Part shown: in pieces, positions 1 through 15,744 of the stretch
How the letters are laid out: each line of letters begins with the position of its first letter
How positions within the stretch are numbered: the first letter of the stretch is position 1
Source: a virus
Reading direction: 5' to 3' (one strand)
Virus record (IMG/VR): IMGVR_UViG_3300017727_000192
Coordinates: 1 to 21,959 of that record
DNA length: 21,959 bases
Notes under the pieces: model-generated
Seen by the model: only the letters and a program-made list of their open reading frames with translations
Told to the model about the DNA's origin: nothing
Databases searched by the model: none
Position numbers and translations under genes: made by a program

Positions 1-585
1 AAAGGCGACATGAAAGGTGACATGGGACGTAAACCTAAGGCACTAACTAGTCTTGTGCGTAACACAGTAAACATGATTGGCAGTTATAACGTTGGTATGG
101 TGTGTACTAACCACACATACGCTTCACAGGACATGTTTGATCCAGATGACAAGATCAGTGGCGGACAAGGCTTTATCTATGCAAGTAGTATTGTTATTGC
201 AATGCGTAAACTAAAACTAAAAGAAGACCTAGATGGCAATAAAACTACTACTGTAAATGGTATTCGTGCAGCGTGTAAGGTTATGAAAACACGTTATGCA
301 AAGCCGTTTGAAGCAGTACAGGTTAAGATTCCATATGAAACAGGCATGGATCCCTATAGTGGATTACTTGACTTGTTTGAAGCAAAAGGTATGCTGACTA
401 AACAGGGCAATCGACTAAAGTATACAACTACCGCAGGCGAAGAAATGCTAGAGTTTCGTAAAGGATGGACAGGAGATAAACTTCAGGTTATTATGGATGA
501 CATTTCTAACGCAGATGGACTAAGTATTGATGACATTGTTGAGCAAACAGTGACAGAACCGGAGGAAGTAACATCTGATGAATGA
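1..585 (+). CDS. uvsX: UvsX recombinase, C-terminal part (5' end outside window)
   Basis: RecA/RAD51-like strand-exchange protein of T4-type phages; it coats single-stranded DNA and drives homologous pairing for recombination-dependent replication. The frame is open from base 1, so the gene is cut by the window edge and the Walker A region is missing. Visible are the GDMGRKPKALTSL segment, a hydrophobic strand ending in NHTYAS (the core strand before loop L2), and the DDKISGGQGFIYAS segment, which corresponds to the MSGGTGVMYAA-type loop of T4 UvsX. The C-terminus is acidic (TEPEEVTSDE), as is common for single-strand-DNA recombinases. It overlaps the next gene by 8 bp, whose ribosome site (GGAGGAAG, about 561) lies inside uvsX. 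The uvsY-like gene two positions downstream supports the call. The family call is firm; the N-terminal half cannot be judged. Confidence 0.93.
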   Translation, partial: KGDMKGDMGRKPKALTSLVRNTVNMIGSYNVGMVCTNHTYASQDMFDPDDKISGGQGFIYASSIVIAMRKLKLKEDLDGNKTTTVNGIRAACKVMKTRYAKPFEAVQVKIPYETGMDPYSGLLDLFEAKGMLTKQGNRLKYTTTAGEEMLEFRKGWTGDKLQVIMDDISNADGLSIDDIVEQTVTEPEEVTSDE

Positions 586-802
586 AGATATCTTTAAATC
601 GATATATAGTGTACTCAAACAATATATTCCTGCAAAAGATTTACAACAAGCAACAGATCATCTTGTAGATGATGCACAAGAGTTTTTAGAAGAAGATGAA
701 CTGTATAGACTAGCAGGACTTGACAAGCATATGAAAGCAAGTGTTAGCGAGATTATTGGCGAGCCAGACTTTGATCATGAAGACGAGGACCTAGACTATT
801 GA
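578..802 (+). CDS. Small acidic protein between uvsX and uvsY
   Basis: A 74-residue protein I do not recognise. It is strongly acidic, especially at the C-terminus (EPDFDHEDEDLDY), with a mid-region EFLEEDELYRLAGL that should be helical. No cysteines, membrane segment or catalytic motif are visible. The ATG at 578 is preceded by a good GGAGGAAG ribosome site and overlaps the uvsX stop by 8 bp; its own stop overlaps the TTG start of the uvsY-like gene (TTGA). Translation is therefore likely coupled across uvsX, this gene and uvsY. The position suggests a role near the recombination machinery, and the acidic tail might mimic DNA or regulate UvsX/UvsY, but that is inference from context only. 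Confidence 0.8.
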   Translation: MNEDIFKSIYSVLKQYIPAKDLQQATDHLVDDAQEFLEEDELYRLAGLDKHMKASVSEIIGEPDFDHEDEDLDY

Positions 803-1260
803 GTCAATGGTATAATAGAGTAGTAAACAATCTTGTTGAGATTCCTAAGTTCATTAGTTACTATGAAAGTGAACTAGAAGAAGCAAAGCATGAGTGTAAT
901 GTTAAAGGTATTGTAGAAAAAAATATCACTGCACTGCCAGGTATAACCGAGCATCGTTTCAATCAACTTCAAGAGATTGAAGCAGTGCTTAACTACTTAA
1001 ACATACAACTTCGTAAGATTAGACGCAAGCATTTCCAAAAATATTTGGAAGGATATGCCCGTGCGTTAACAAGTCGCGATGCTGAAAAGTATGTTGATGG
1101 CGAGGATGAAGTCATTGACTTTGAAACTATTATTAACGAAGTAGCACTGTTGCGCAATAGATGGCTAGGCATAATGAAAGGCTTAGATACTAAGCAGTGG
1201 CAGATGGGACATGTTGTTAGACTTAGAACAGCAGGCATGGAAGATATCAGGATAGATTAA
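799..1260 (+). CDS. uvsY: UvsY-like recombination mediator
   Basis: In T4, UvsY is a hexameric mediator that loads UvsX on single-stranded DNA covered by gp32. This 153-residue protein is slightly longer than T4 UvsY (137 aa) and shares its overall pattern: a helical N-terminal half, a basic central stretch (QLRKIRRKHFQKYLEGYARALTS), an acidic segment with conserved-looking Val/Asp spacing (VDGEDEVIDFETIINEVALLRNRWLGIMKGL), and a C-terminal helix containing VVRLRTAGMEDIR that resembles the T4 IKHIQDMRAFEAG ending. The start is TTG at 799, overlapping the preceding stop as TTGA; no ATG in this frame gives a sensible full-length protein. It ends TAATG into the next gene. Adjacency to uvsX supports the call; the sequence match alone is distant. 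Confidence 0.8.
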   Translation: MSQWYNRVVNNLVEIPKFISYYESELEEAKHECNVKGIVEKNITALPGITEHRFNQLQEIEAVLNYLNIQLRKIRRKHFQKYLEGYARALTSRDAEKYVDGEDEVIDFETIINEVALLRNRWLGIMKGLDTKQWQMGHVVRLRTAGMEDIRID

Positions 1261-4657: not shown

Positions 4658-5548
4658 ATGCGTACATTATCAGTATTTACCACCTGGCATCCCACAGGTT
4701 ATAAGAAATATGGCAAGCAGTTTATTGAGGGATATAATCTAAACTGGCCCAAAGAAGTTCCTCTTACAATCTATGCAGAGGATCACAGCCCAAGTGTAGA
4801 AGGTAATCACAGTATTACTGTACACGACCAACGAACAACCTTGCCAGACCTTAAGGCTTGGCAAGAACGACACAAAGACAATCCGCATGCACACGGATGG
4901 AACAAAGATAAGAGCAAAAAAAGTTTTTTGTGGGACGCAAGTCGTTTTGCAAACAAAGTATTTGCACTGTGGCATTTTGCAGAACACTGTGATACAGATA
5001 TCTTCGTCTGGTGTGATGCGGATGTGAGAACACATACACCAATGACACTGGAGTTTTTACATAGTATTGCACCAAACGAAAATCAACTTGCAACATATCT
5101 AGGACGCAAGACTTGGCCCGAGTGTGGCTGGATGATGTTTAATCGTCGTCATCCACAGTTTGCGGAGTTAATGGAACAGTGGCGTTGGATTTACGAAAGC
5201 GATGATATTTTCAATCACGATGAAAGCCATGACAGTTTTATCTTTGGAGAACTTGTAGAGGACTTTAAAGCAGTGGGTGTAGAGTTTAATGACCTAGGCG
5301 GCGCTGACCAAGGCGGGCATATCTTTATTAACAGTGTACTAGGTGCTTACATGGATCACTTAAAGGGCTTTAGAAAAGAAGTAGGCAAAAGTCTTGCAGG
5401 CGATATCACTGGTGGTTTTCAGCATAAAGACAACGAATGGTGGCAGGACGTAAGACATGTTACTAAAAGTCAAATACAAGCAGAGAAACTTAAAAATCCG
5501 CATGAGTACGATGCTACTAAACAAGTGAAATCGAAAGGTATAAAATGA
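4658..5548 (+). CDS. GT-A-like glycosyltransferase with DxD motif
   Basis: A 296-residue cytoplasmic protein with a glycosyltransferase-like layout. The N-terminal strand MRTLSVFTTWHPTGY is followed by a charged loop, a helix (FANKVFALWHFAEHC), and the strand-end motif IFVWCDADV with Asp-Ala-Asp at 120-122, the usual metal/nucleotide-sugar site of GT-A folds. GWMMFNRRHPQF resembles the acceptor-side segment of phage and GT8-like enzymes, and an HDESHDSFIFGEL stretch follows. The ATG at 4658 is the only start that keeps the first strand; its ribosome site is weak (AAGGA 14 bases upstream). Its stop overlaps the next start (ATGA). Sugar donor and acceptor cannot be read from the sequence. Confidence 0.7.
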   Translation: MRTLSVFTTWHPTGYKKYGKQFIEGYNLNWPKEVPLTIYAEDHSPSVEGNHSITVHDQRTTLPDLKAWQERHKDNPHAHGWNKDKSKKSFLWDASRFANKVFALWHFAEHCDTDIFVWCDADVRTHTPMTLEFLHSIAPNENQLATYLGRKTWPECGWMMFNRRHPQFAELMEQWRWIYESDDIFNHDESHDSFIFGELVEDFKAVGVEFNDLGGADQGGHIFINSVLGAYMDHLKGFRKEVGKSLAGDITGGFQHKDNEWWQDVRHVTKSQIQAEKLKNPHEYDATKQVKSKGIK

Positions 5549-6318
5549 GTAACCTAAGTGTATTACAAAACATAACAGAAGTGCGCAGCGATCCATTTCC
5601 ATATGTGTGCGTGGAAGGCGCAATGCCTGATAGATTTTACAGAGAACTAGAAGCAACATTTCCAGAGGATATGATTGTTAATAATACACAGCCACATGAT
5701 GGCGGTATTTGTTATCGCTTTAAATGTAAAGAAGCAACTATGTGGCAACCGCCTGCTATTTGGCAAGACTTTTTTGCGTATCACTCAAGCACAGAATACT
5801 TTCGTAGTTGTGCAGAACTATTTGCTCCTCACATTGTTGCAGCATATGGTGAAGAGTTTTATGAAAACTTAAAAACAAAGCCAGTTAGTGTGCGTGATGT
5901 TGACCCCAGTGGACACTATGTAACAGACTGTCAGTTTGTTGTGCATGAGCCTGTGGATCAAACTGGCACTAGTCGTACACCGCATGTTGATAATCCTGTA
6001 GAGATTTATGCCGGACTACTATACATGCGCAAGCAAGCAGACATGGCAGAGGGTGGAAACTTTACAGTACATCGTGTAACAGGAGAAATCACAGAAGTAA
6101 ATAAGAGCTTGGGCAGACAAGTGGACAACAGTTTGCACGAGCCGGTGTTTGAAGTACCTTATCGTGCAAATAACTTTTGTATGTTCCTAAATGTAAAAAA
6201 CAGTGTACACAGTGTTACACCTCGCATTGCTCCGACAGAGCGCAGACACAGCATCAACATTATTGGTGAGTTCAACGGCACAGGCAAGATGTGGAAAGTA
6301 AAAGAAATCAAATCGTGA
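5545..6318 (+). CDS. 2-oxoglutarate/Fe(II)-dependent oxygenase
   Basis: A 257-residue oxygenase of the prolyl-4-hydroxylase-like double-stranded beta-helix type. The iron triad is visible: His147-x-Asp149 in TPHVDNP and His222 in VHSVTP, with Arg233/Arg234 (RRHSINI) placed to bind 2-oxoglutarate. Between them, GLLYMRK and EGGNFTVHR match the usual core strands. These enzymes hydroxylate amino-acid side chains, sugars, lipids or nucleobases using O2 and 2-oxoglutarate. Such genes are frequent in marine T4-like phages. Start ATG 5545 overlaps the previous stop (ATGA), and its stop overlaps the GTG start of the radical SAM gene, so the three are translationally linked. Substrate unknown. Confidence 0.87.
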   Translation: MSNLSVLQNITEVRSDPFPYVCVEGAMPDRFYRELEATFPEDMIVNNTQPHDGGICYRFKCKEATMWQPPAIWQDFFAYHSSTEYFRSCAELFAPHIVAAYGEEFYENLKTKPVSVRDVDPSGHYVTDCQFVVHEPVDQTGTSRTPHVDNPVEIYAGLLYMRKQADMAEGGNFTVHRVTGEITEVNKSLGRQVDNSLHEPVFEVPYRANNFCMFLNVKNSVHSVTPRIAPTERRHSINIIGEFNGTGKMWKVKEIKS

Positions 6319-7448
6319 AAGCACATTGTTTAATACCCTGGACTAACATAGACATAGGCCCACGTGGACACATGGTGCCATGCTGTAAGTATGAATGTGA
6401 CAACAGTGAAATGTTAAACATTACAGAAAACAGTGTACAAGATTATGTTGACAGTGACTTTCTCAAAGATATCAAAACCACTATGCTGAAAAATGAATGG
6501 CCCGAAGGTTGCATTCGTTGTCGCACAGAGGAAGAGAATGGTATTAAAAGCAAACGAGAACTTGACTACGAGCGTTGGCAAACTCACTATGATGACTACA
6601 ATGATCAAAAAGGATTTATTACAGCAAGCATAGGCTTCGGTAACACTTGTAACCTGAAGTGTATTACTTGTAATCCAACAAGCAGTAGTCGTTGGCGCAA
6701 AGAATACGCAGACATATATGGCGTAGACAAACCTCCTGTTGAAACAATCAGTCAAGCTGCTGACGACATTTATGCTAGCATGCCTAATCTCATACACTTG
6801 GATGTTATTGGTGGTGAACCTCTTATCAGTGAACCAGAAAAACAACAAGAACTACTATTACGTTATGTACAAAGCGGACAAGCAAAAGACATGACACTGC
6901 ACTATACTACAAATGCACAACAGTTTCCCAGTGAGATATGGTGGGACATTTGGTGTAACTTTGCAGAGATTGACATGCAGTTGAGCATTGACGCAGTAGG
7001 TCCTCGCTATGAATACATACGTCATCCTGCATGCAGTGTAACACTTGAAGACAATGTAAAGAGCTGGCAAGAGGCTACACGAGAATATAGTAACCTACGA
7101 CTTAGTGTAAGTCATACACTAAGCGCATACAACGTTTATTATTTGGATGAGTTTTTTAGTTGGTGTGAACATTTTGAGTTGCCTAGACCGTGGGTAGGAA
7201 GAGTACACACGCCCAAACACATGCGAGTAGATGTATTTCCTATGCAAGTAAAACAAAATATTATAGAGCATTTGCAGACAAGTAAATACCGAGACGTAAA
7301 TACTTGGGCAAAGTTTTTATCAAGTAACGACAGCAGCGAATACTATGCAGACTTTAGGCGTTATACAGATCAACACGATTTATACAGACACACTAACTTT
7401 GCAGAAACATTCCCAGAACTAGAAAGGGTTATAAATGGCGTTCAATAA
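6315..7448 (+). CDS. Radical SAM protein with extra N-terminal cysteine cluster
   Basis: A 377-residue radical SAM enzyme. The CxxxCxxC iron-sulfur motif is NTCNLKCITCNP, with Cys112, Cys116 and Cys119 from the GTG start. A glycine-rich GGEP follows downstream (VIGGEPLISEPE), typical of the SAM-binding strand. Before the core is a second Cys-rich part (Cys5, PCC at 22-24, Cys28, CIRC at 66-69) that looks like a twitch/SPASM-type auxiliary cluster placed N-terminally rather than C-terminally. I chose GTG 6315, which overlaps the upstream stop as GTGA and starts just before HCLIPW; an in-frame GTG 24 bases upstream is less likely. The gene overlaps the next by 14 bp. Substrate unknown; peptide, sugar or nucleotide are possible. 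Confidence 0.87.
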   Translation: MKAHCLIPWTNIDIGPRGHMVPCCKYECDNSEMLNITENSVQDYVDSDFLKDIKTTMLKNEWPEGCIRCRTEEENGIKSKRELDYERWQTHYDDYNDQKGFITASIGFGNTCNLKCITCNPTSSSRWRKEYADIYGVDKPPVETISQAADDIYASMPNLIHLDVIGGEPLISEPEKQQELLLRYVQSGQAKDMTLHYTTNAQQFPSEIWWDIWCNFAEIDMQLSIDAVGPRYEYIRHPACSVTLEDNVKSWQEATREYSNLRLSVSHTLSAYNVYYLDEFFSWCEHFELPRPWVGRVHTPKHMRVDVFPMQVKQNIIEHLQTSKYRDVNTWAKFLSSNDSSEYYADFRRYTDQHDLYRHTNFAETFPELERVINGVQ

Positions 7449-8250: not shown

Positions 8251-8815
8251 TGCAGATGTATGCCGTATTACATTTGAAAAGTGTATACCGCATATTACAA
8301 ACTTTACTACAGCAATAGATGTAGGCTGTCGTTATGGACAGTTTACTAGACCTATTTTAGAATATTTTGATCATTGTTATAGTTTCGATTACAGGTTGAC
8401 GAAAGACATGAAGGCGTTGCTAGCAGAAACACTTGGAAAAAAAATAACCTACTATGAAACAGGACTCAGTGACAAAGAAGAAACTGCTACGGCATGGGGT
8501 GGCGTTATCGTAGAAAACAGACAAGGACACTTCAGCGACAGTAAAAAGATGCAAGCACATTTAACAACCATGGACAGTTATGGTATACAAGACGTGGGCT
8601 TTATTAAGATAGATGTAGAAGGGCACGAGCTCATGGTACTGCGAGGTGCGCTGAACACAATAGAAAGAAATAATCCTGTTATTTGCATAGAGCAAAATGA
8701 TGCTACAGAGAAATGGGGAAAAGGCAAGGAGTTTGAGGCACTAGACTTTCTTAAAGACATAGGCTACACAGTGGTTGATACAAGAAAGCATGATTACATT
8801 ATGGTACGCAAATAA
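8237..8815 (+). CDS. FkbM-family methyltransferase
   Basis: A 192-residue methyltransferase with the two hallmarks of the FkbM family: motif I AIDVGCRYGQF (about 26-36) and the highly diagnostic GFIKIDVEGHELMVLRGA (121-138), followed by PVICIEQN. FkbM proteins O-methylate sugar or polyketide hydroxyls and are common in O-antigen and capsule loci, which fits the neighbours. The start is GTG at 8237 with an AAAGGA ribosome site 9-14 bases upstream, overlapping the previous gene by 14 bp; the stop overlaps the next start as TAATG. It is slightly shorter than stand-alone FkbM enzymes (220-280 aa) but both key motifs are intact. Confidence 0.88.
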   Translation: MQLTSADVCRITFEKCIPHITNFTTAIDVGCRYGQFTRPILEYFDHCYSFDYRLTKDMKALLAETLGKKITYYETGLSDKEETATAWGGVIVENRQGHFSDSKKMQAHLTTMDSYGIQDVGFIKIDVEGHELMVLRGALNTIERNNPVICIEQNDATEKWGKGKEFEALDFLKDIGYTVVDTRKHDYIMVRK

Positions 8816-9507
8816 TGTTTATTACAACAAATCACGAGCTGGGATTCATACACATTCCTAAATGTGGCGGAAGCAGTGTGTATCTAGCATTTGCAGGAGA
8901 AGATAAACGCTACAGGAAACGTGCAGACATGCCGTGGGCACCATGGCCCATACATAAAGCACACTCAAAATACAGAAGTGCATACCCTTATAAATCAGAT
9001 AATAAACAACTGCCATTATTTCCACCACCTAAGCAGTGGTTCGCTACAGTGCGTAATCCATATGCACGTTATCACACTTGGTTTTACTATCAACAAGAGT
9101 GGGATAGAAAACGATACGAAGGCGAACTGCCGTTAAAAGGTGGACTAACAATGGAAATGCTGGAATGGAGAATGCGTTATTGGGATACTGCAACTCCGCT
9201 CGGTGTTATTAAAACGTTTGATACAATCGACAAAGACGACTGTTGGCTATATGCTGTTGGTAATATTAGAACTCCTCAGTGGATGTGGATTACTGGCAGT
9301 GATGCAAAGTGCTTCAAACTAGAAAATATTGATAAAATGTGGACTTGGCTAGAAGACATGGGCACACATGTTGAGCCTTTACACAATAAAAAGAACACAG
9401 CCAAAAAAGGCACATGGCTAGACCTAGACGAAGAAGTACTAGTGCTTATTCAACAACGCTACAAGCAGGATTTCAATAAGTTTAAATATGACATGGTTAT
9501 TACCTAA
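8815..9507 (+). CDS. Sulfotransferase family protein (first of tandem pair)
   Basis: A 230-residue carbohydrate-sulfotransferase-like enzyme, expected to move sulfate from PAPS to a hydroxyl or amine. The 5'-phosphosulfate loop is FIHIPKCGGSS (PKCGGSS at 15-21) and the 3'-phosphate motif is VRNPYARYHT (Arg80 to Thr88), where Thr occupies the usual Ser position. The N-terminus starts right at the first strand, without the transmembrane anchor of Golgi enzymes, so it is a soluble cytoplasmic form. Its stop lies inside the next gene, a second sulfotransferase (20-bp overlap). The two share motif layout but little else, so they probably act on different positions or acceptors. Confidence 0.85.
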   Translation: MFITTNHELGFIHIPKCGGSSVYLAFAGEDKRYRKRADMPWAPWPIHKAHSKYRSAYPYKSDNKQLPLFPPPKQWFATVRNPYARYHTWFYYQQEWDRKRYEGELPLKGGLTMEMLEWRMRYWDTATPLGVIKTFDTIDKDDCWLYAVGNIRTPQWMWITGSDAKCFKLENIDKMWTWLEDMGTHVEPLHNKKNTAKKGTWLDLDEEVLVLIQQRYKQDFNKFKYDMVIT

Positions 9508-10198
9508 TACAGACTTACTGTTTATCCATATTCCTAAATGTGGTGGTACAAGCATAAGCAAAAGTTTAACTCGTTGCGCTATTGATTTAACAGTTCCGAG
9601 ATTTCCACAAAGCACAATAGAAACTATTTGGCCCAGGGATGTTAGAAAAAAAGCACCACCTCACATTAAAGTAAGTGAATATATTGCACTGGGATATGAT
9701 CTAAGTAAGCATCATGTGTTCACACAAGTACGCAACCCTTACACACGATTAGTCAGTGTATATTATTTTGTTAAACGACAAGACAAAGCAAGAATGCATG
9801 GCAGAGACACAGATTTAAAAACAGATATACAGTTTTACCGCCGGCGTTACACGATGTTCAAGCACATGAGCTTCGAAGAGTTTGTTAAGACTTTTTTAGA
9901 CCGTGATCAACAACCTGATTTAATCAATAAATGGGTAGTAGAAACTACCAGTCAACTAGTGTATGGACTTACTCCTCAGTATGCATGGACAGATGGACAC
10001 CCTGTACAAATCTTTAAAATGGAAAAAGCAAACAAAGCAGTAAGGTTTATACAAGAAAAGATGGGTAAAGAGTTTTTCTATAGACATATGAAATGGCAAA
10101 GAATACAAGACTACATGGGACATTACAACGATGAACTCAGAGAACTTGTATATGAATACTATAAACAAGACTTTGCGAAGTTTGACTATGCTGCATAA
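9488..10198 (+). CDS. Sulfotransferase family protein (second of tandem pair)
   Basis: A 236-residue PAPS-dependent sulfotransferase-like protein. LLFIHIPKCGGTS carries the phosphosulfate-binding PKCGGTS (16-22), and QVRNPYTRLVSVYY (82-90 for the core) is a near-consensus 3'-phosphate site with Arg82 and Ser90. The C-terminal helix ELRELVYEYYKQDFAKFDY is the ending typical of Sulfotransfer_2 proteins, and the first copy ends the same way (QRYKQDFNKFKYD). The only good start is ATG 9488, within the 3' end of the first copy. Its 3' end overlaps the KpsS-like gene at 10188 by 11 bp. No membrane segment is visible. The acceptor is unknown. Confidence 0.87.
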   Translation: MTWLLPNTDLLFIHIPKCGGTSISKSLTRCAIDLTVPRFPQSTIETIWPRDVRKKAPPHIKVSEYIALGYDLSKHHVFTQVRNPYTRLVSVYYFVKRQDKARMHGRDTDLKTDIQFYRRRYTMFKHMSFEEFVKTFLDRDQQPDLINKWVVETTSQLVYGLTPQYAWTDGHPVQIFKMEKANKAVRFIQEKMGKEFFYRHMKWQRIQDYMGHYNDELRELVYEYYKQDFAKFDYAA

Positions 10199-10955
10199 AA
10201 ATCTCAACAATCCTGACAGTAAATGCAACTGGGTAATGAACAGTTTACAAACGGGTTGGCAAGGACCCGAGCATCATTTCTGGGGTTTTATTGGCAACAA
10301 TGAACAACAAATAAAAAAACTAACAGCCGAAGGCAAGGACTGGTATTTCTGGGACATGCCATATTATGGAAGATGGAATGGACTTAAACAAGCACTCAAT
10401 CCTGAACAAGATTTTTATTGGCGGGCAAGCCGTAATCACATACACTATCGTCGCACTGAGGACTATCCGGACGATAGATTTAGACAATGGGGTGTACAAC
10501 CAAAGCCACATACCCTTGGATCCAAAATACTAGTATGTCCTAGCAGTGAAACAATGACACGTTGGTGTACTGGTATGGATGTAAAAATGTGGACAAATAC
10601 CATTGTTACTGCACTGCGTAAGTATACTGATAGATATATTGAAGTTAGATATAAGCCTCGCAAAAACGGCACAAGCGGTCCTAGTGTTGCAGATATTCCT
10701 TTTGCACAGCAATGTGAAAATACGCACTGTGTAGTTACTTGCATAAGTTTAGCGGCAGTGGAAGCACAACTATTAGGTATTCCAACCATATGTCATCCAT
10801 ACAGTTTTGCAGCGGACATAAGTAGTACTAAGTTAGAAGAAATCGAAAATCCTCGTCGTGTAGACACACAGCAATGGTTTAATAATCTTGCATACAGCCA
10901 GTTTACACATGGTGAGATTGAAAGCGGATTAGCACAAGAGATACTCAATGCCTAA
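10188..10955 (+). CDS. KpsC/KpsS-like capsule-type glycan protein
   Basis: A 255-residue protein related in its C-terminal half to the genes at 2908-3762 and 10948. The diagnostic part is HCVVTCISLAAVEAQLLGIPTICHPYSF, where a polar residue/Ser turn is followed by an EA-helix and G-I/V-P strand as in KpsC/KpsS capsule proteins. KILVCPSSETMTRW before it is the start of the second Rossmann-like half, and VRYKPR matches the KP/HP strand end. I took ATG 10188 rather than one 57 bases upstream because it gives a short 11-bp overlap with the sulfotransferase gene and begins the conserved-looking region. The N-terminal half is shorter than in the other two copies. The donor sugar cannot be inferred. 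Confidence 0.65.
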   Translation: MLHKNLNNPDSKCNWVMNSLQTGWQGPEHHFWGFIGNNEQQIKKLTAEGKDWYFWDMPYYGRWNGLKQALNPEQDFYWRASRNHIHYRRTEDYPDDRFRQWGVQPKPHTLGSKILVCPSSETMTRWCTGMDVKMWTNTIVTALRKYTDRYIEVRYKPRKNGTSGPSVADIPFAQQCENTHCVVTCISLAAVEAQLLGIPTICHPYSFAADISSTKLEEIENPRRVDTQQWFNNLAYSQFTHGEIESGLAQEILNA

Positions 10956-11874
10956 ACTATATGTGTTTGACACACAGCGAAAAATAACCACAGACGTAAC
11001 CATTGCATTTGCCAGAGGTGTTGCGCATCATAATAATCTAACACAAGGTCCTTGGGAAGTTAGACACATTCCTATTCAAAACTTTTTGGACAACGGCATG
11101 CCAGGAGATCTTGAACCAGGCGTCGATGCAGTTGCTACACTGGGCATACTTCGTGGTACAGGACTTATGCTTAAACAAGCAAAACGCCAAGGACTAGATT
11201 ATTACTATATGGATCATGCTTACTTTAATCCAGGCTATAACGGTAAAGGCTGGATGCGTATTAGTAAGAATGGACACAGTTGCCCTATAATCAGAGAATG
11301 CGACAAAGATAAATTCAAAGGATTTCATAACAATCACGGACACACTATAGAACCATGGCGTACTAATGAACAACGCGGAGATAAAATACTTGTACTGCCT
11401 CCAACAAATGCTGTGGCATGGTTTTTTGATGAACCTGATTGGGCACAAAATACAGTGGCAGCACTAAAAAATATACTCCCTCCCGAACAACACACGAGAA
11501 TAGTTGTTAGAAATAAACCAAAAGAACCTGTTGTTGATGCTAGAGGCTTTTTAAAACATTTAAAAATAAATGATATGAATGGCTCAACGCCTATCCAACA
11601 AGATCTTGAAGATGCGCAGTGTGTAGTTGCTTACAATAGTATGGTTGCACTGCAAGCAACTATGATGGGTATTCCTGTTATTGCTAGCGAAAACAGTCCT
11701 TGTGCTAGGATTAGTTTTGCACTAGATGACATTGCAAATCCTCAAGTGTTCAACCAAGAACCACAAAATAGACATAAACTTGTGTATTGGTTAGCATACA
11801 ATCAATGGAAAATGAGAGACATTGACAACGGCAAAGCCTGGCAAATGTTGCAGGAGAACTATAGTGGTTTTTAA
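10948..11874 (+). CDS. KpsC/KpsS-like capsule-type glycan protein
   Basis: A 308-residue protein with the same two-part layout as its upstream neighbour: an N-terminal alpha/beta part (MPKLYVFDTQRK to YYYMDHAYFNPGY) and a C-terminal part opening with KILVLPPTNAVAWFF and ending in the signature CVVAYNSMVALQATMMGIPVIASENSPCA. RIVVRNKPKEPV corresponds to the basic strand end seen in the other copies. The shared segments DxxYYxDHxY and WFDMPYY in the two adjacent genes suggest an old tandem duplication. The ATG at 10948 overlaps the previous gene by 8 bp, and the kinase-fold gene starts inside its end. The function is inferred only as glycan transfer. Confidence 0.66.
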   Translation: MPKLYVFDTQRKITTDVTIAFARGVAHHNNLTQGPWEVRHIPIQNFLDNGMPGDLEPGVDAVATLGILRGTGLMLKQAKRQGLDYYYMDHAYFNPGYNGKGWMRISKNGHSCPIIRECDKDKFKGFHNNHGHTIEPWRTNEQRGDKILVLPPTNAVAWFFDEPDWAQNTVAALKNILPPEQHTRIVVRNKPKEPVVDARGFLKHLKINDMNGSTPIQQDLEDAQCVVAYNSMVALQATMMGIPVIASENSPCARISFALDDIANPQVFNQEPQNRHKLVYWLAYNQWKMRDIDNGKAWQMLQENYSGF

Positions 11875-12874: not shown

Positions 12875-13538
12875 ACGAGCAGACATTGAAAGTATCACAT
12901 TTGGTGGACACGACAGTCCGATAACACAAGTACGAGGATATCAAAACTATGATATCAGTGACGAACAAGTGTTAGCATTAAATAATCCAGGACCAAAGCG
13001 TCCATGGGTAGATACAAAAATAAAAAGCAGAGATTTTGAACGTATATTTTTTGAGATAAGTCCTCGTAGTTATGCTGACTTTGGCAGTAATCTAGGCTAT
13101 TATGTTTTCAAAAGCGCACAAGAGTTTGATGTACCCAGTGTAGGTGTAGACTATAACCGAGAATACATCGGTGTATGCGAAACAATAAAGCAAAGACACA
13201 GTGCGGCATTGGCAACATTTGTAAACACTAACTTAGATACATGGTGCCTGGACTCAGACCATTATGATTTTATGACAGTGTTTAATGTTATTCATCATTT
13301 ATACAATCGAACAGAACGCTACATGGACATGGAGAAACTCGTAAACGACTTTGCTGACAAAGCAAGTGTAATATTATTTGAAGTACCCACAGAAAAAGAT
13401 AAAAAAGGTCACAAATGGACTATGGATACTGGCTACAGCGAAGCACTGTTTGTAGAATGTGCAAATGAAATCTTTGCTAGTGTTGAACACATGCCAGGAC
13501 AAACACAGCATCGTCCTTATTATTTGTGCAAGACTTGA
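12861..13538 (+). CDS. Class-I SAM-dependent methyltransferase
   Basis: A 225-residue methyltransferase. Motif I is YADFGSNLGYYVF (71-83), motif II VGVDYN (94-99), and motif IV YDFMTVFNVIHHL, followed by the strand VILFEVPTEK. The N-terminal 60 residues (MQTLERADIESITFGGHDS) form a separate alpha/beta lead-in, perhaps for substrate binding. I chose ATG 12861, which follows a TTG directly and sits 10 bases after an AGGA ribosome site. It overlaps the kinase-fold gene by 14 bp. Ten bases separate its stop from the next start, one of the few gaps in this block. Acceptor unknown; a methyltransferase of this type is commonly found beside sugar-modifying genes. Confidence 0.82.
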   Translation: MQTLERADIESITFGGHDSPITQVRGYQNYDISDEQVLALNNPGPKRPWVDTKIKSRDFERIFFEISPRSYADFGSNLGYYVFKSAQEFDVPSVGVDYNREYIGVCETIKQRHSAALATFVNTNLDTWCLDSDHYDFMTVFNVIHHLYNRTERYMDMEKLVNDFADKASVILFEVPTEKDKKGHKWTMDTGYSEALFVECANEIFASVEHMPGQTQHRPYYLCKT

Positions 13539-13549
13539 AAGGATCCTCA

Positions 13550-14239
13550 ATGAACAACATTTATGTAGGCTGGGACAGCCGTGAAGATATTGCATATCAA
13601 GTATGCGAACACTCAATACTAAGACGCACATACCGAGAGTTTGTAAATGTAATACCACTAAAGCAAAATGATCTACGAGAGCAAAAAGTTTATTGGCGCG
13701 AAGTAGATAAACTTGCTAGCACAGAGTTTACATTTACACGCTTTCTTATTCCGCATCTAAACAACTACAAAGGACTAGCAGTGTTCTGTGATAGTGATAT
13801 GGTGTTTTTAACTGATGCACATCATTTGTTTAACAACGGATTTAGAGATACTAGCAAAGCAGTTTGGGTAGTAAAGCATGACTACAATCCTCCGGAAGGA
13901 CTAAAGATGGATGGGCAAATGCAGTTGCAGTATCCTCGAAAGAACTGGTCGAGCTTTATGATCTTTAACTGCGAACATCCTAGTTGTAAGAACTTGGATT
14001 TAGAAACCGTAAACAGTGAAACAGGCGCATACCTGCACCGCTTCGAATGGTGCGATGATAGCGAGATTGGTGTACTGGGTCCTGAATGGAACTGGCTAGT
14101 AGGACATTACAACGAGCCTCAGGATGGTACACCTAAGGTACTACACTACACCGAAGGTGGTCCGTGGTTTGAAAACATGCGTGATTGCGAATATGATCAT
14201 GTGTGGAAAAAAGAAGTAATCAACATGTATAGTAGTTAA
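13550..14239 (+). CDS. GT8-like glycosyltransferase
   Basis: A 229-residue GT-A protein with the opening IYVGWDSREDIAYQVCEHSI, recurrent in phage and bacterial GT8-like transferases, and the donor site GLAVFCDSDMVFL with Asp81-Ser-Asp83. The acceptor-side strand NWSSFMIFNCEHP and the C-terminal VLHYTEGGPWF, where His would complete metal coordination as in GT8, are present. ATG 13550 follows an AAAGGA ribosome site by about 8 bases; an in-frame upstream codon would push the start into the previous gene. Its stop abuts the next ATG with no gap. GT8 donors are usually UDP-Glc or UDP-Gal; that is family knowledge, not read from this sequence. Confidence 0.8.
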   Translation: MNNIYVGWDSREDIAYQVCEHSILRRTYREFVNVIPLKQNDLREQKVYWREVDKLASTEFTFTRFLIPHLNNYKGLAVFCDSDMVFLTDAHHLFNNGFRDTSKAVWVVKHDYNPPEGLKMDGQMQLQYPRKNWSSFMIFNCEHPSCKNLDLETVNSETGAYLHRFEWCDDSEIGVLGPEWNWLVGHYNEPQDGTPKVLHYTEGGPWFENMRDCEYDHVWKKEVINMYSS

Positions 14240-15022
14240 ATGAAAAAAGTAGTATTAGTTACAGGCGGATTTGATCCCTTACATTCAGGACACATTGCAT
14301 ATTTTAAAGCGGCTGCTGAACTAGGCGATGAACTATGGGTTGGCTTAAACAGTGATGAATGGTTATCCCGTAAAAAAGGACGCAGTTTTATGCCTATACA
14401 AGAACGTGCAAGTATTGTAGAAGCAATGGGCTGCGTTAAGCAAGTTATAACTGGATTCAAAGATGATGACGATAGTGCTTGTGATGCTATTCGTTGGGCA
14501 CTAGAGTTAGGTGCTGAACATGTAGTATTTGCCAATGGCGGCGACCGCGGCGATGGTAACTGCCCTGAACTAGAAACTTACACAGCGCACGATGATGTAT
14601 CATTTGTTTGGGGTGTTGGCGGCACAGATAAAAAGAATAGCAGCAGTTGGATTCTCAAAGAATGGCGAGCACCTAAAGTAGAACGCGAGTGGGGACACTA
14701 CAGAGAACTATACAGCGGTGATGGATTTAGTGTCAAGGAACTGGTGATTGCTCCGCACAGTAGTCTCAGCATGCAGAAACATAAACATCGCAGTGAAACT
14801 TGGAATCTAGTAAGTGGCAGTGCATATGTACTAACCAGTACTGGTTCTGATCCATTTGACGGCGCAGGACGACAAACGCTAACTCCGCCTAATCCTGTGG
14901 ACATTCCACGTGGCGTATGGCACCAAGGCGTAAACGACAGCGATGAGCCTGCACACATTGTTGAAGTTTGGAAAGGCCCTAGCGAGCAGTTAACCGAAGA
15001 TGACATTGAGCGTTTTGAATGA
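14240..15022 (+). CDS. HldE-like nucleotidyltransferase fused to mannose-6-phosphate isomerase-type cupin
   Basis: A 260-residue two-domain protein. Residues 1-130 are a cytidylyltransferase-like domain: GGFDPLHSGH carries the HxGH site at 15-18, and LNSDEWLSRKKGR with the following PIQERASIVEAMGCVKQVI closely follows the adenylyltransferase half of HldE/RfaE (ADP-heptose) and related GDP/CDP-sugar enzymes; VFANGGDR parallels the KGGD segment. Residues 145-260 are a cupin like the C-terminus of ManC: EREWGHY, GFSVKELVIAPHSSLSMQ, metal His181/His183 and Glu186, PRGVWHQGVN (His228), ending VEVWKG and LTEDDIERFE. Together they could isomerise and activate a sugar phosphate. The ManC guanylyltransferase domain itself is absent. 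ATG abuts the upstream stop. Confidence 0.85.
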   Translation: MKKVVLVTGGFDPLHSGHIAYFKAAAELGDELWVGLNSDEWLSRKKGRSFMPIQERASIVEAMGCVKQVITGFKDDDDSACDAIRWALELGAEHVVFANGGDRGDGNCPELETYTAHDDVSFVWGVGGTDKKNSSSWILKEWRAPKVEREWGHYRELYSGDGFSVKELVIAPHSSLSMQKHKHRSETWNLVSGSAYVLTSTGSDPFDGAGRQTLTPPNPVDIPRGVWHQGVNDSDEPAHIVEVWKGPSEQLTEDDIERFE

Positions 15023-15744
15023 AAGAAGTAGCACTGGTATGTGCTGGCGCAAAGTTTGATCCCGATATTCATGTCCGCCAAATATACCTAAACTTACAAA
15101 AGAACTGTAGTGATTTTAGATTAACTGTTTTTACTGACAAAGGCAGAGGTCTAGACTTGCCAGGTGTGCGACTTATACAGTTACCAGATTGGAATCTATC
15201 ACCTAGACAGTTATGGTGGTATAAACTTTACATACACGCACAGCATGAATGGACTGGACCTGTGCTATACATGGATTTAGACACTGTAATCATCAACAAC
15301 ATAGACAAGTTTTGGGATTATCACCCGGGTGATTTTTGTATTTGCCAAGACTTTAATAGACAGTTTATCAGAGACTATGCTGTTAGCAACAGCAGTATTA
15401 TGCGGTTTGATCCCGGCACTACCTCGGAGATGTATAATAACTTTGTAGGTAATATAGAAAAACATCTGCGTCAGTTTCGAGGTGATCAAGACTATGTTAC
15501 TGATTGGTTTAAGAATCGTCCTGAGAAAACTTGGTGGCCCAAAGAATGGGCAATGAGTTACAAATGGGAAATAAAACATGGCGGTAGTCGTATAGGTGGA
15601 ATGGATGTAAAATATCCAGATGATTACTACCATCCGGAACATGATGAAGTCATTCCGGATAAATGCAGTATTGTAGTATTTCACGGAAAACCTGATCCAT
15701 ATGACACAGATTTTGGTAAAAAAAGGTTGACAGTTCCTATATAG
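15019..15744 (+). CDS. GT-A-like glycosyltransferase with DxD motif
   Basis: A 241-residue glycosyltransferase. The N-terminal strand KEVALVCAGAKFD starts the nucleotide-binding fold; PVLYMDLDTVIINNID holds Asp86-Leu-Asp88, the metal site. GDQDYV (about 155-160) and the C-terminal IVVFHGKPDP, with His as a likely third metal ligand, are typical of this group. It is the last gene of the accessory-enzyme block. The ATG overlaps the previous stop (ATGA). Its last codons contain the -35 box of the next promoter (TTGACA at 15727), so translation of this gene and initiation at that promoter may interfere. Donor and acceptor unknown. Confidence 0.8.
   Translation: MKEVALVCAGAKFDPDIHVRQIYLNLQKNCSDFRLTVFTDKGRGLDLPGVRLIQLPDWNLSPRQLWWYKLYIHAQHEWTGPVLYMDLDTVIINNIDKFWDYHPGDFCICQDFNRQFIRDYAVSNSSIMRFDPGTTSEMYNNFVGNIEKHLRQFRGDQDYVTDWFKNRPEKTWWPKEWAMSYKWEIKHGGSRIGGMDVKYPDDYYHPEHDEVIPDKCSIVVFHGKPDPYDTDFGKKRLTVPI

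What the first reader, a model, noticed from the sequence alone, without database searches (positions are those of the whole stretch)
14240..15022. Fusion of an HldE-like nucleotidyltransferase with a mannose-6-phosphate isomerase-type cupin
In bacteria the cupin is usually fused to a GDP-mannose pyrophosphorylase (ManC), and HldE-type nucleotidyltransferases to a sugar kinase. Here the two halves are recombined into one 260-residue protein, with the metal ligands and HxGH site intact. It may isomerise and activate an unusual sugar phosphate and would define the sugar used by the island.
Basis: partly seen in the sequence, partly recalled or inferred. Interest (0 to 1): 0.65.

Follow-up and report, generated by a model that had tools for sequence, protein, structure and literature searches.

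The report
Phage nucleotidyltransferase–mannose-isomerase cupin fusion
A marine phage carries a two-part enzyme, also found on SAR86 chromosomes, that appears to be an alternative way to make activated mannose for surface sugars: a familiar mannose isomerase joined to a nucleotidyltransferase not known for this job.

Summary
In detail: the 260-aa ORF at 14240-15022 (+) is an HldE/TagD-type (HxGH) nucleotidyltransferase (NT) joined to a type II phosphomannose-isomerase cupin, with active-site residues intact. It is not a one-off. At least 597 IMG/VR stretches encode relatives; the best 80 are essentially full-length. It is also a chromosomal gene in 109 of 199 genomes of the SAR86 order, but was seen in none of 397 other Pseudomonadota.

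The bacterial copies point to a function. Fusion and canonical ManC never co-occur (0 of 18 ManC genomes; closely related SAR86 carry one or the other). Both sit in the same surface-polysaccharide island beside gmd/fcl. 27 of 36 gmd-positive genomes have the fusion and no ManC, six have ManC, three neither. No SAR86 genome sampled has a type I PMI. Two gmd-positive fusion genomes checked protein by protein have only GalU, MurU-like and GlmU as classical NTs.

Best reading: a non-orthologous ManC replacement, fructose-6-P to mannose-6-P (cupin), then mannose-1-P to GDP-mannose (NT). The phage probably uses it to feed its glycosyltransferase island. All of this is inferred from genomes. The NT's nucleotide and sugar are untested, and five SAR86 genomes keep the NT without a cupin.

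The parts
14240..15022 (+). NT-cupin fusion gene, 260 aa plus stop; the start follows the previous stop directly and the stop overlaps the next start (ATGA)
14240..14665 (+). HxGH nucleotidyltransferase domain (residues 1-142)
   Evidence: Pfam CTP_transf_like; AF2/VIA match to 3glv, 1coz TagD, 5xf2 HldC
14282..14293 (+). HSGH motif (residues 15-18)
   Evidence: H15, G17 and H18 invariant
14534..14548 (+). NGGDR motif (residues 99-103), aligns with KGGDY of HldE
   Evidence: invariant in 91 sequences; alignment
14630..14647 (+). KKNSSS motif (residues 131-136), at the place of STT in HldE
   Evidence: K131, N133, S134-136 invariant
14675..15019 (+). type II phosphomannose isomerase cupin domain (residues 146-260)
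   Evidence: Pfam MannoseP_isomer; VIA Z 16.0/15.8 to 7zvy/7zvm PMI
14774..14797 (+). QxHxxRxE motif (residues 179-186), proposed metal/substrate site
   Evidence: Q179, H181, R184, E186 invariant in fusions and ManC
14921..14923 (+). H228, proposed metal ligand
   Evidence: invariant
14996..15013 (+). ExDIxR motif (residues 253-258), shared with the ManC C-terminus; the ManC DxYGR tail is lost here
13526..14239 (+). GT8/GT24-like GT-A glycosyltransferase, the commonest neighbour of the fusion
   Evidence: within two genes in 58 of 90 loci; AF2 and Foldseek
15019..15744 (+). next gene of the operon, glycosyltransferase (phrog_1962)
   Evidence: 4-base overlap
10131..11874 (+). two related island proteins (10131-10955, 10948-11874) often found with the fusion; 10131-type is fused to the GT8-like gene in many loci
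10..1260 (+). UvsX C-terminal part (10-585) and UvsY-like protein (799-1260); T4-type replication genes that border the island
   Evidence: phrog_231; match to annotated cyanophage UvsX regions

Best explanation
The protein is a non-orthologous replacement for ManC. The C-terminal cupin interconverts fructose-6-P and mannose-6-P (type II PMI). A host phosphoglucomutase/phosphomannomutase makes mannose-1-P. The N-terminal HxGH nucleotidyltransferase then joins mannose-1-P to a nucleotide, most likely GTP, giving GDP-mannose. In SAR86 this feeds Gmd/Fcl and surface-polysaccharide synthesis; in the phage it feeds the adjacent glycosyltransferase island, probably to remodel a glycan during infection. 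Shown: domains, conserved residues, fold, genomic distribution, exclusion with ManC, shared island with gmd/fcl. Inferred: both reactions, the nucleotide, the phage's use of the product.
For: ManC and the fusion never co-occur in 199 SAR86-order genomes (18 and 109; 0 both; Fisher p 2e-7, not corrected for phylogeny). Closely related genomes differ: ManC G097 is sister to fusion G183; ManC G070 groups with fusion G149 and G175, which has neither; ManC G106 and fusion G173 are in the same clade (UvrC tree). Both lie in the same island after pgsA-uvrC, near gmd/fcl. Of 36 gmd genomes 27 have the fusion, 6 ManC, 3 neither; among non-ManC genomes gmd goes with the fusion (27/30 vs 82/151, p 2e-4). 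Type I PMI: 0 of 199. G019 and G052 (fusion + gmd) have only GalU, MurU-like and GlmU as PF00483 proteins, identified by NCBIfam; MurU-sized proteins also occur in ManC genomes. Two PGM/PMM proteins in 15 of 17 genomes tested. The cupin keeps the invariant residues of ManC cupins, and deep-branching fusions keep the ManC DxYGR tail. The model matches PMI structures.
Against: Five SAR86 genomes keep an intact NT without the cupin and have no gmd, ManC or detected PMI, so the NT may have another substrate. I know of no HxGH-family enzyme that uses GTP. 82 fusion genomes have no detected gmd. Gmd was found in only 1 of 31 phage records, mostly fragments. The neighbouring phage glycosyltransferase resembles GT8/GT24, whose known members mostly use UDP-sugars (my knowledge). 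Some deep-branching fusions sit beside NeuB and PseB/PseC. G149 also has an HddC-like guanylyltransferase fused to GmhB. Genomes are MAGs/SAGs, so absences are soft, and the Fisher tests ignore shared ancestry.
Confidence: 0.6

Rival explanations
1. The fusion isomerises and activates a different sugar phosphate (for example a pentose or heptose), giving an ADP-, CDP- or UDP-sugar; the link with gmd only reflects shared polysaccharide islands.
For: The NT is closest to HldE/TagD-type enzymes that use ATP or CTP. NT-only homologues exist in SAR86 and cyanophages. A parallel in T4-like phage RB69: a proposed UDP-arabinose gene module, with sugar-isomerase-like and NTP-transferase-like parts, between DNA polymerase and uvsX (PMC6024577).
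Against: Strict exclusion with ManC among close relatives; no type I PMI and, in two genomes checked, no other classical GDP-mannose enzyme although gmd is present; ManC-type cupin residues.
Confidence: 0.22
2. It is an HldE equivalent that makes ADP-heptose.
For: The best curated NT match is the HldE C-terminal domain (59.1 bits); PHROG annotation says heptose enzyme; pelagimyophage rfaE genes are reported (PMC7029224).
Against: Well under the HldE cut-off (59.1 vs 181.5 bits); no kinase domain; 12 genomes carry both full HldE and the fusion.
Confidence: 0.07
3. The cupin is not an isomerase but a sugar-nucleotide epimerase or binding module acting on the NT product.
For: Cupins include epimerases, and the best structural hit (CapF cupin domain) is not a PMI.
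Against: It passes the PMI cupin family cut-off, keeps residues that are invariant in ManC cupins, and matches PMI structures equally well (Z 16.0 vs 16.4, a tie).
Confidence: 0.08
4. It supplies a sugar for glycosylating the phage's own DNA, as in T4/RB69.
For: Close to uvsX-uvsY, and cyanophage homologues lie between gp43 and uvsX, the position of the RB69 arabinose module.
Against: The island holds sulfotransferases, FkbM and other methyltransferases and several glycosyltransferases, more like polysaccharide or glycoprotein decoration; the same gene is chromosomal in SAR86 polysaccharide islands.
Confidence: 0.03

Closest known systems
ManC / AlgA / CpsB (TIGR01479, bifunctional mannose-1-P guanylyltransferase / mannose-6-P isomerase)
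   Same: Same C-terminal type II PMI cupin with invariant residues; same island position next to gmd/fcl; mutually exclusive distribution in SAR86.
   Different: The N-terminal domain is an unrelated HxGH nucleotidyltransferase of about 140 aa instead of the roughly 350-aa NTP_transferase part; 62.9 vs 372.95 bits needed.
HldE C-terminal domain / HldC (TIGR02199)
   Same: HxGH fold; GGD and STT-like motifs align.
   Different: No kinase; NGGDR and KNSSS signature; below cut-off; co-occurs with true HldE.
TagD glycerol-3-P cytidylyltransferase (TIGR01518)
   Same: NT fold (VIA Z 14.7 to 1coz).
   Different: 41.5 vs 165.4 bits needed; carries a cupin; no teichoic-acid context seen.
Cyanophage stand-alone NT (S-SSM7 SSSM7_186, P-TIM68 gp149; phrog_7878)
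   Same: 54-58% identity over the NT domain; lies by uvsX.
   Different: No cupin; sits between gp43 and uvsX.
RB69 proposed UDP-arabinose module (ORF055c, ORF53_52c)
   Same: Phage-encoded sugar-isomerase-like and NTP-transferase-like parts near uvsX in a T4-like phage (PMC6024577).
   Different: SIS-type isomerase; proposed to serve DNA arabinosylation; different protein families.

Membership tests
ManC (TIGR01479) | Whole-protein score over the curated cut-off (372.95 bits) | tested here: not met
   62.9 bits, cupin part only
ManC (TIGR01479) | N-terminal NTP_transferase (PF00483) domain | tested here: not met
   The N-terminus is CTP_transf_like
ManC (TIGR01479) | C-terminal type II PMI cupin | tested here: met
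   PF01050 63.6 bits, residues 146-260; residues shared with E. coli and SAR86 ManC
ManC (TIGR01479) | Makes GDP-mannose from mannose-1-P and GTP | not testable with these tools
   Inferred from exclusion with ManC and gmd context
Type II PMI cupin (PF01050) | Score over the gathering cut-off | tested here: met
   63.6 vs 23.6 bits
Type II PMI cupin (PF01050) | Conserved QxHxxRxE...H...ExDIxR residues | tested here: met
Type II PMI cupin (PF01050) | Fructose-6-P / mannose-6-P isomerase activity | not testable with these tools
   Needs an enzyme assay
HldE (TIGR02199 / PRK11316) | Score over the curated cut-off (181.5 bits) | tested here: not met
   59.1 bits
HldE (TIGR02199 / PRK11316) | PfkB-type kinase domain | tested here: not met
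   No such domain in 260 aa
HldE (TIGR02199 / PRK11316) | HxGH nucleotidyltransferase fold | tested here: met
   HxGH invariant; VIA Z 14.5 to HldC 5xf2
TagD (TIGR01518) | Score over the curated cut-off (165.4 bits) | tested here: not met
   41.5 bits

The most novel reading that the evidence does not exclude
An HxGH-superfamily nucleotidyltransferase that makes GDP-mannose, fused to its own PMI: a second, independently assembled form of ManC, used by many SAR86 bacteria and carried by marine T4-like phages.
Probability: 0.5. Interest if true: 0.7.

Novelty: new variant of a known kind. Interest (0 to 1): 0.55.

Why it matters
GDP-mannose is the entry point for mannose, fucose and many deoxysugars. 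If right, SAR86, an abundant marine lineage, often uses an unrecognised enzyme for this step, current annotation misnames its phage relatives (heptose enzyme, glycerol-3-P cytidylyltransferase), and marine phages carry the gene as part of glycan islands. It gives a likely substrate for an otherwise unreadable phage glycosyltransferase cluster and a directly testable enzyme.

Tried and rejected
Rare one-off fusion: rejected, at least 597 viral stretches and 109 of 199 SAR86-order genomes. HldE replacement: disfavoured, 12 genomes carry both. MurU-like protein as hidden GDP-mannose source: unlikely, same-sized proteins also occur in ManC genomes, and in G019 and G052 it sits beside an APH-type kinase (AmgK-like); its score is below the MurU cut-off, so not excluded. 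Literature searches for the fusion, for phage ADP-heptose and for SAR86 GDP-mannose found nothing. Cyanophage loci for a split cupin gene beside the NT: none adjacent; S-SCSM2R has NT and a PMI cupin far apart. Gmd in phage records: 1 of 31, so weak for or against. The phage neighbour's fold does not tell its donor sugar.

Full report
Observation. The ORF at 14240-15022 (+) encodes 260 aa. Pfam finds CTP_transf_like at residues 7-72 and the ManC-type cupin MannoseP_isomer at 146-260, both well over their gathering cut-offs. NCBIfam gives only sub-threshold hits to ManC (cupin part, 62.9 vs 372.95 bits), HldE domain II (59.1 vs 181.5) and TagD (41.5 vs 165.4). The gene starts directly after the previous stop and its stop overlaps the next start, so it sits inside a tight operon.

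Fold and residues. AF2 with a 43-sequence alignment gives pLDDT 93.5. The first half aligns with 3glv, B. subtilis TagD (1coz) and Burkholderia HldC (5xf2), the second with CapF's cupin and Thermococcus phosphomannose isomerases 7zvy/7zvm (Z about 16). The relative placement of the two domains is uncertain (pTM 0.72). The key cupin residues are also invariant in E. coli and SAR86 ManC.

Distribution. IMG/VR holds at least 597 stretches that encode relatives; the best 80 cover essentially the whole protein at 52-81% identity. Isolate phages show only the NT half (or only a cupin), in cyanophages between gp43 and uvsX. Bacterial genome contigs include SAR86 single-cell genomes with full-length copies among housekeeping genes; the Neomarinimicrobiota and Rhodobacteraceae hits (L082-L084) share neighbours with viral loci and are probably viral. 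In 199 genomes of the SAR86 order, 109 carry a full or near-full fusion and five an NT alone; of 398 sampled genomes of the phylum only the SAR86 query genome matched. In the protein tree the phage copies lie together with the main SAR86 clade, inside a wider set of SAR86 sequences; the direction of transfer is not settled, and some branches are weak.

Phage context. The window borders are UvsX and a UvsY-like protein. In 58 of 90 loci the GT8-like gene (window 13526) lies within two genes of the fusion, often followed by the 10131/10948/2908-type proteins and a 4658-type protein. The GT is a GT-A fold like GT8/GT24 enzymes. Pelagimyophage genomes are reported to hold rfaE and GT8 genes, read by the authors as host O-chain modification (PMC7029224). 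One phage locus (L045) has a gmd-like gene about 3 kb away.

What the SAR86 copies say. Canonical ManC (nucleotidyltransferase part) is present in 18 of the 199 genomes, never with the fusion. A UvrC tree puts ManC and fusion genomes side by side: G097/G183, G070 with G149 and G175, and G106 and G173 in the same clade. The loci share rpsA-ihf-pyrF-pgi-uvrC-pgsA and then a polysaccharide island that holds either ManC or the fusion, with Wzz, gmd and often fcl. The islands differ in other genes, so this is exchange of island content and not a clean single-gene swap. Gmd, which needs GDP-mannose, occurs in 36 genomes: 27 fusion, 6 ManC, 3 neither. No genome has a type I PMI. In G019 and G052 the PF00483 proteins are GalU, a MurU-like protein and GlmU; in G109, G154 and G051 the sizes suggest no additional type, not checked one by one; G183 adds a confirmed RmlA. 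G149 and G112 have an HddC-like guanylyltransferase fused to GmhB, so they are not clean cases. Two PGM/PMM proteins were found in 15 of 17 genomes, one each in G183 and G084.

Conclusion and limits. The simplest account is a ManC replacement built from a different nucleotidyltransferase. It rests on co-occurrence, exclusion and family knowledge; no reaction was measured. NT-only genes with intact motifs, fusion genomes without gmd, NeuB/PseB/PseC neighbours of deep-branching fusions, and the UDP-like phage GT are not explained. Genome absences are soft because most are MAGs or SAGs.

Noticed in passing
L045:2937-4241 (also L005:1011-2348): Phage gene that fuses a CTP_transf_3 (CMP-sugar synthetase type) domain with an RraA-like aldolase domain, near the NT-cupin gene.
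   Followed up: no
L008:2887-4410: Phage gene with a MobA-like NTP transferase domain followed by an APH-type kinase domain, like a fused MurU-AmgK pair.
   Followed up: no
L117:10362-11882: SAR86 HldE-like protein with reversed domain order, NT first and kinase second, two genes after an NT-cupin fusion.
   Followed up: no
L134:6106-6549, L136:9102-9545, L137:6906-7343, L135:10011-10475, L138:9445-9894: NT-only homologues in SAR86 with intact motifs; three sit before the same 844-aa gene and one by metK/sahH-type genes, positions where other SAR86 genomes carry the full fusion.
   Followed up: partly
window 8815-10198: Two adjacent Sulfotransfer_2 genes in a phage glycan island.
   Followed up: no
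window 6291-7448: Radical SAM/SPASM protein beside a weak 2OG-Fe(II) oxygenase match (5545-6318).
   Followed up: no
L007:5764-7530, L008:5771-7465 and similar: The window 13526-type glycosyltransferase and the 10131-type protein are one 554-588 aa ORF in many viral loci.
   Followed up: partly
SAR86 genomes G048, G061, G092, G185 (L123 for G048): SAR86 genomes with two copies of the fusion.
   Followed up: no
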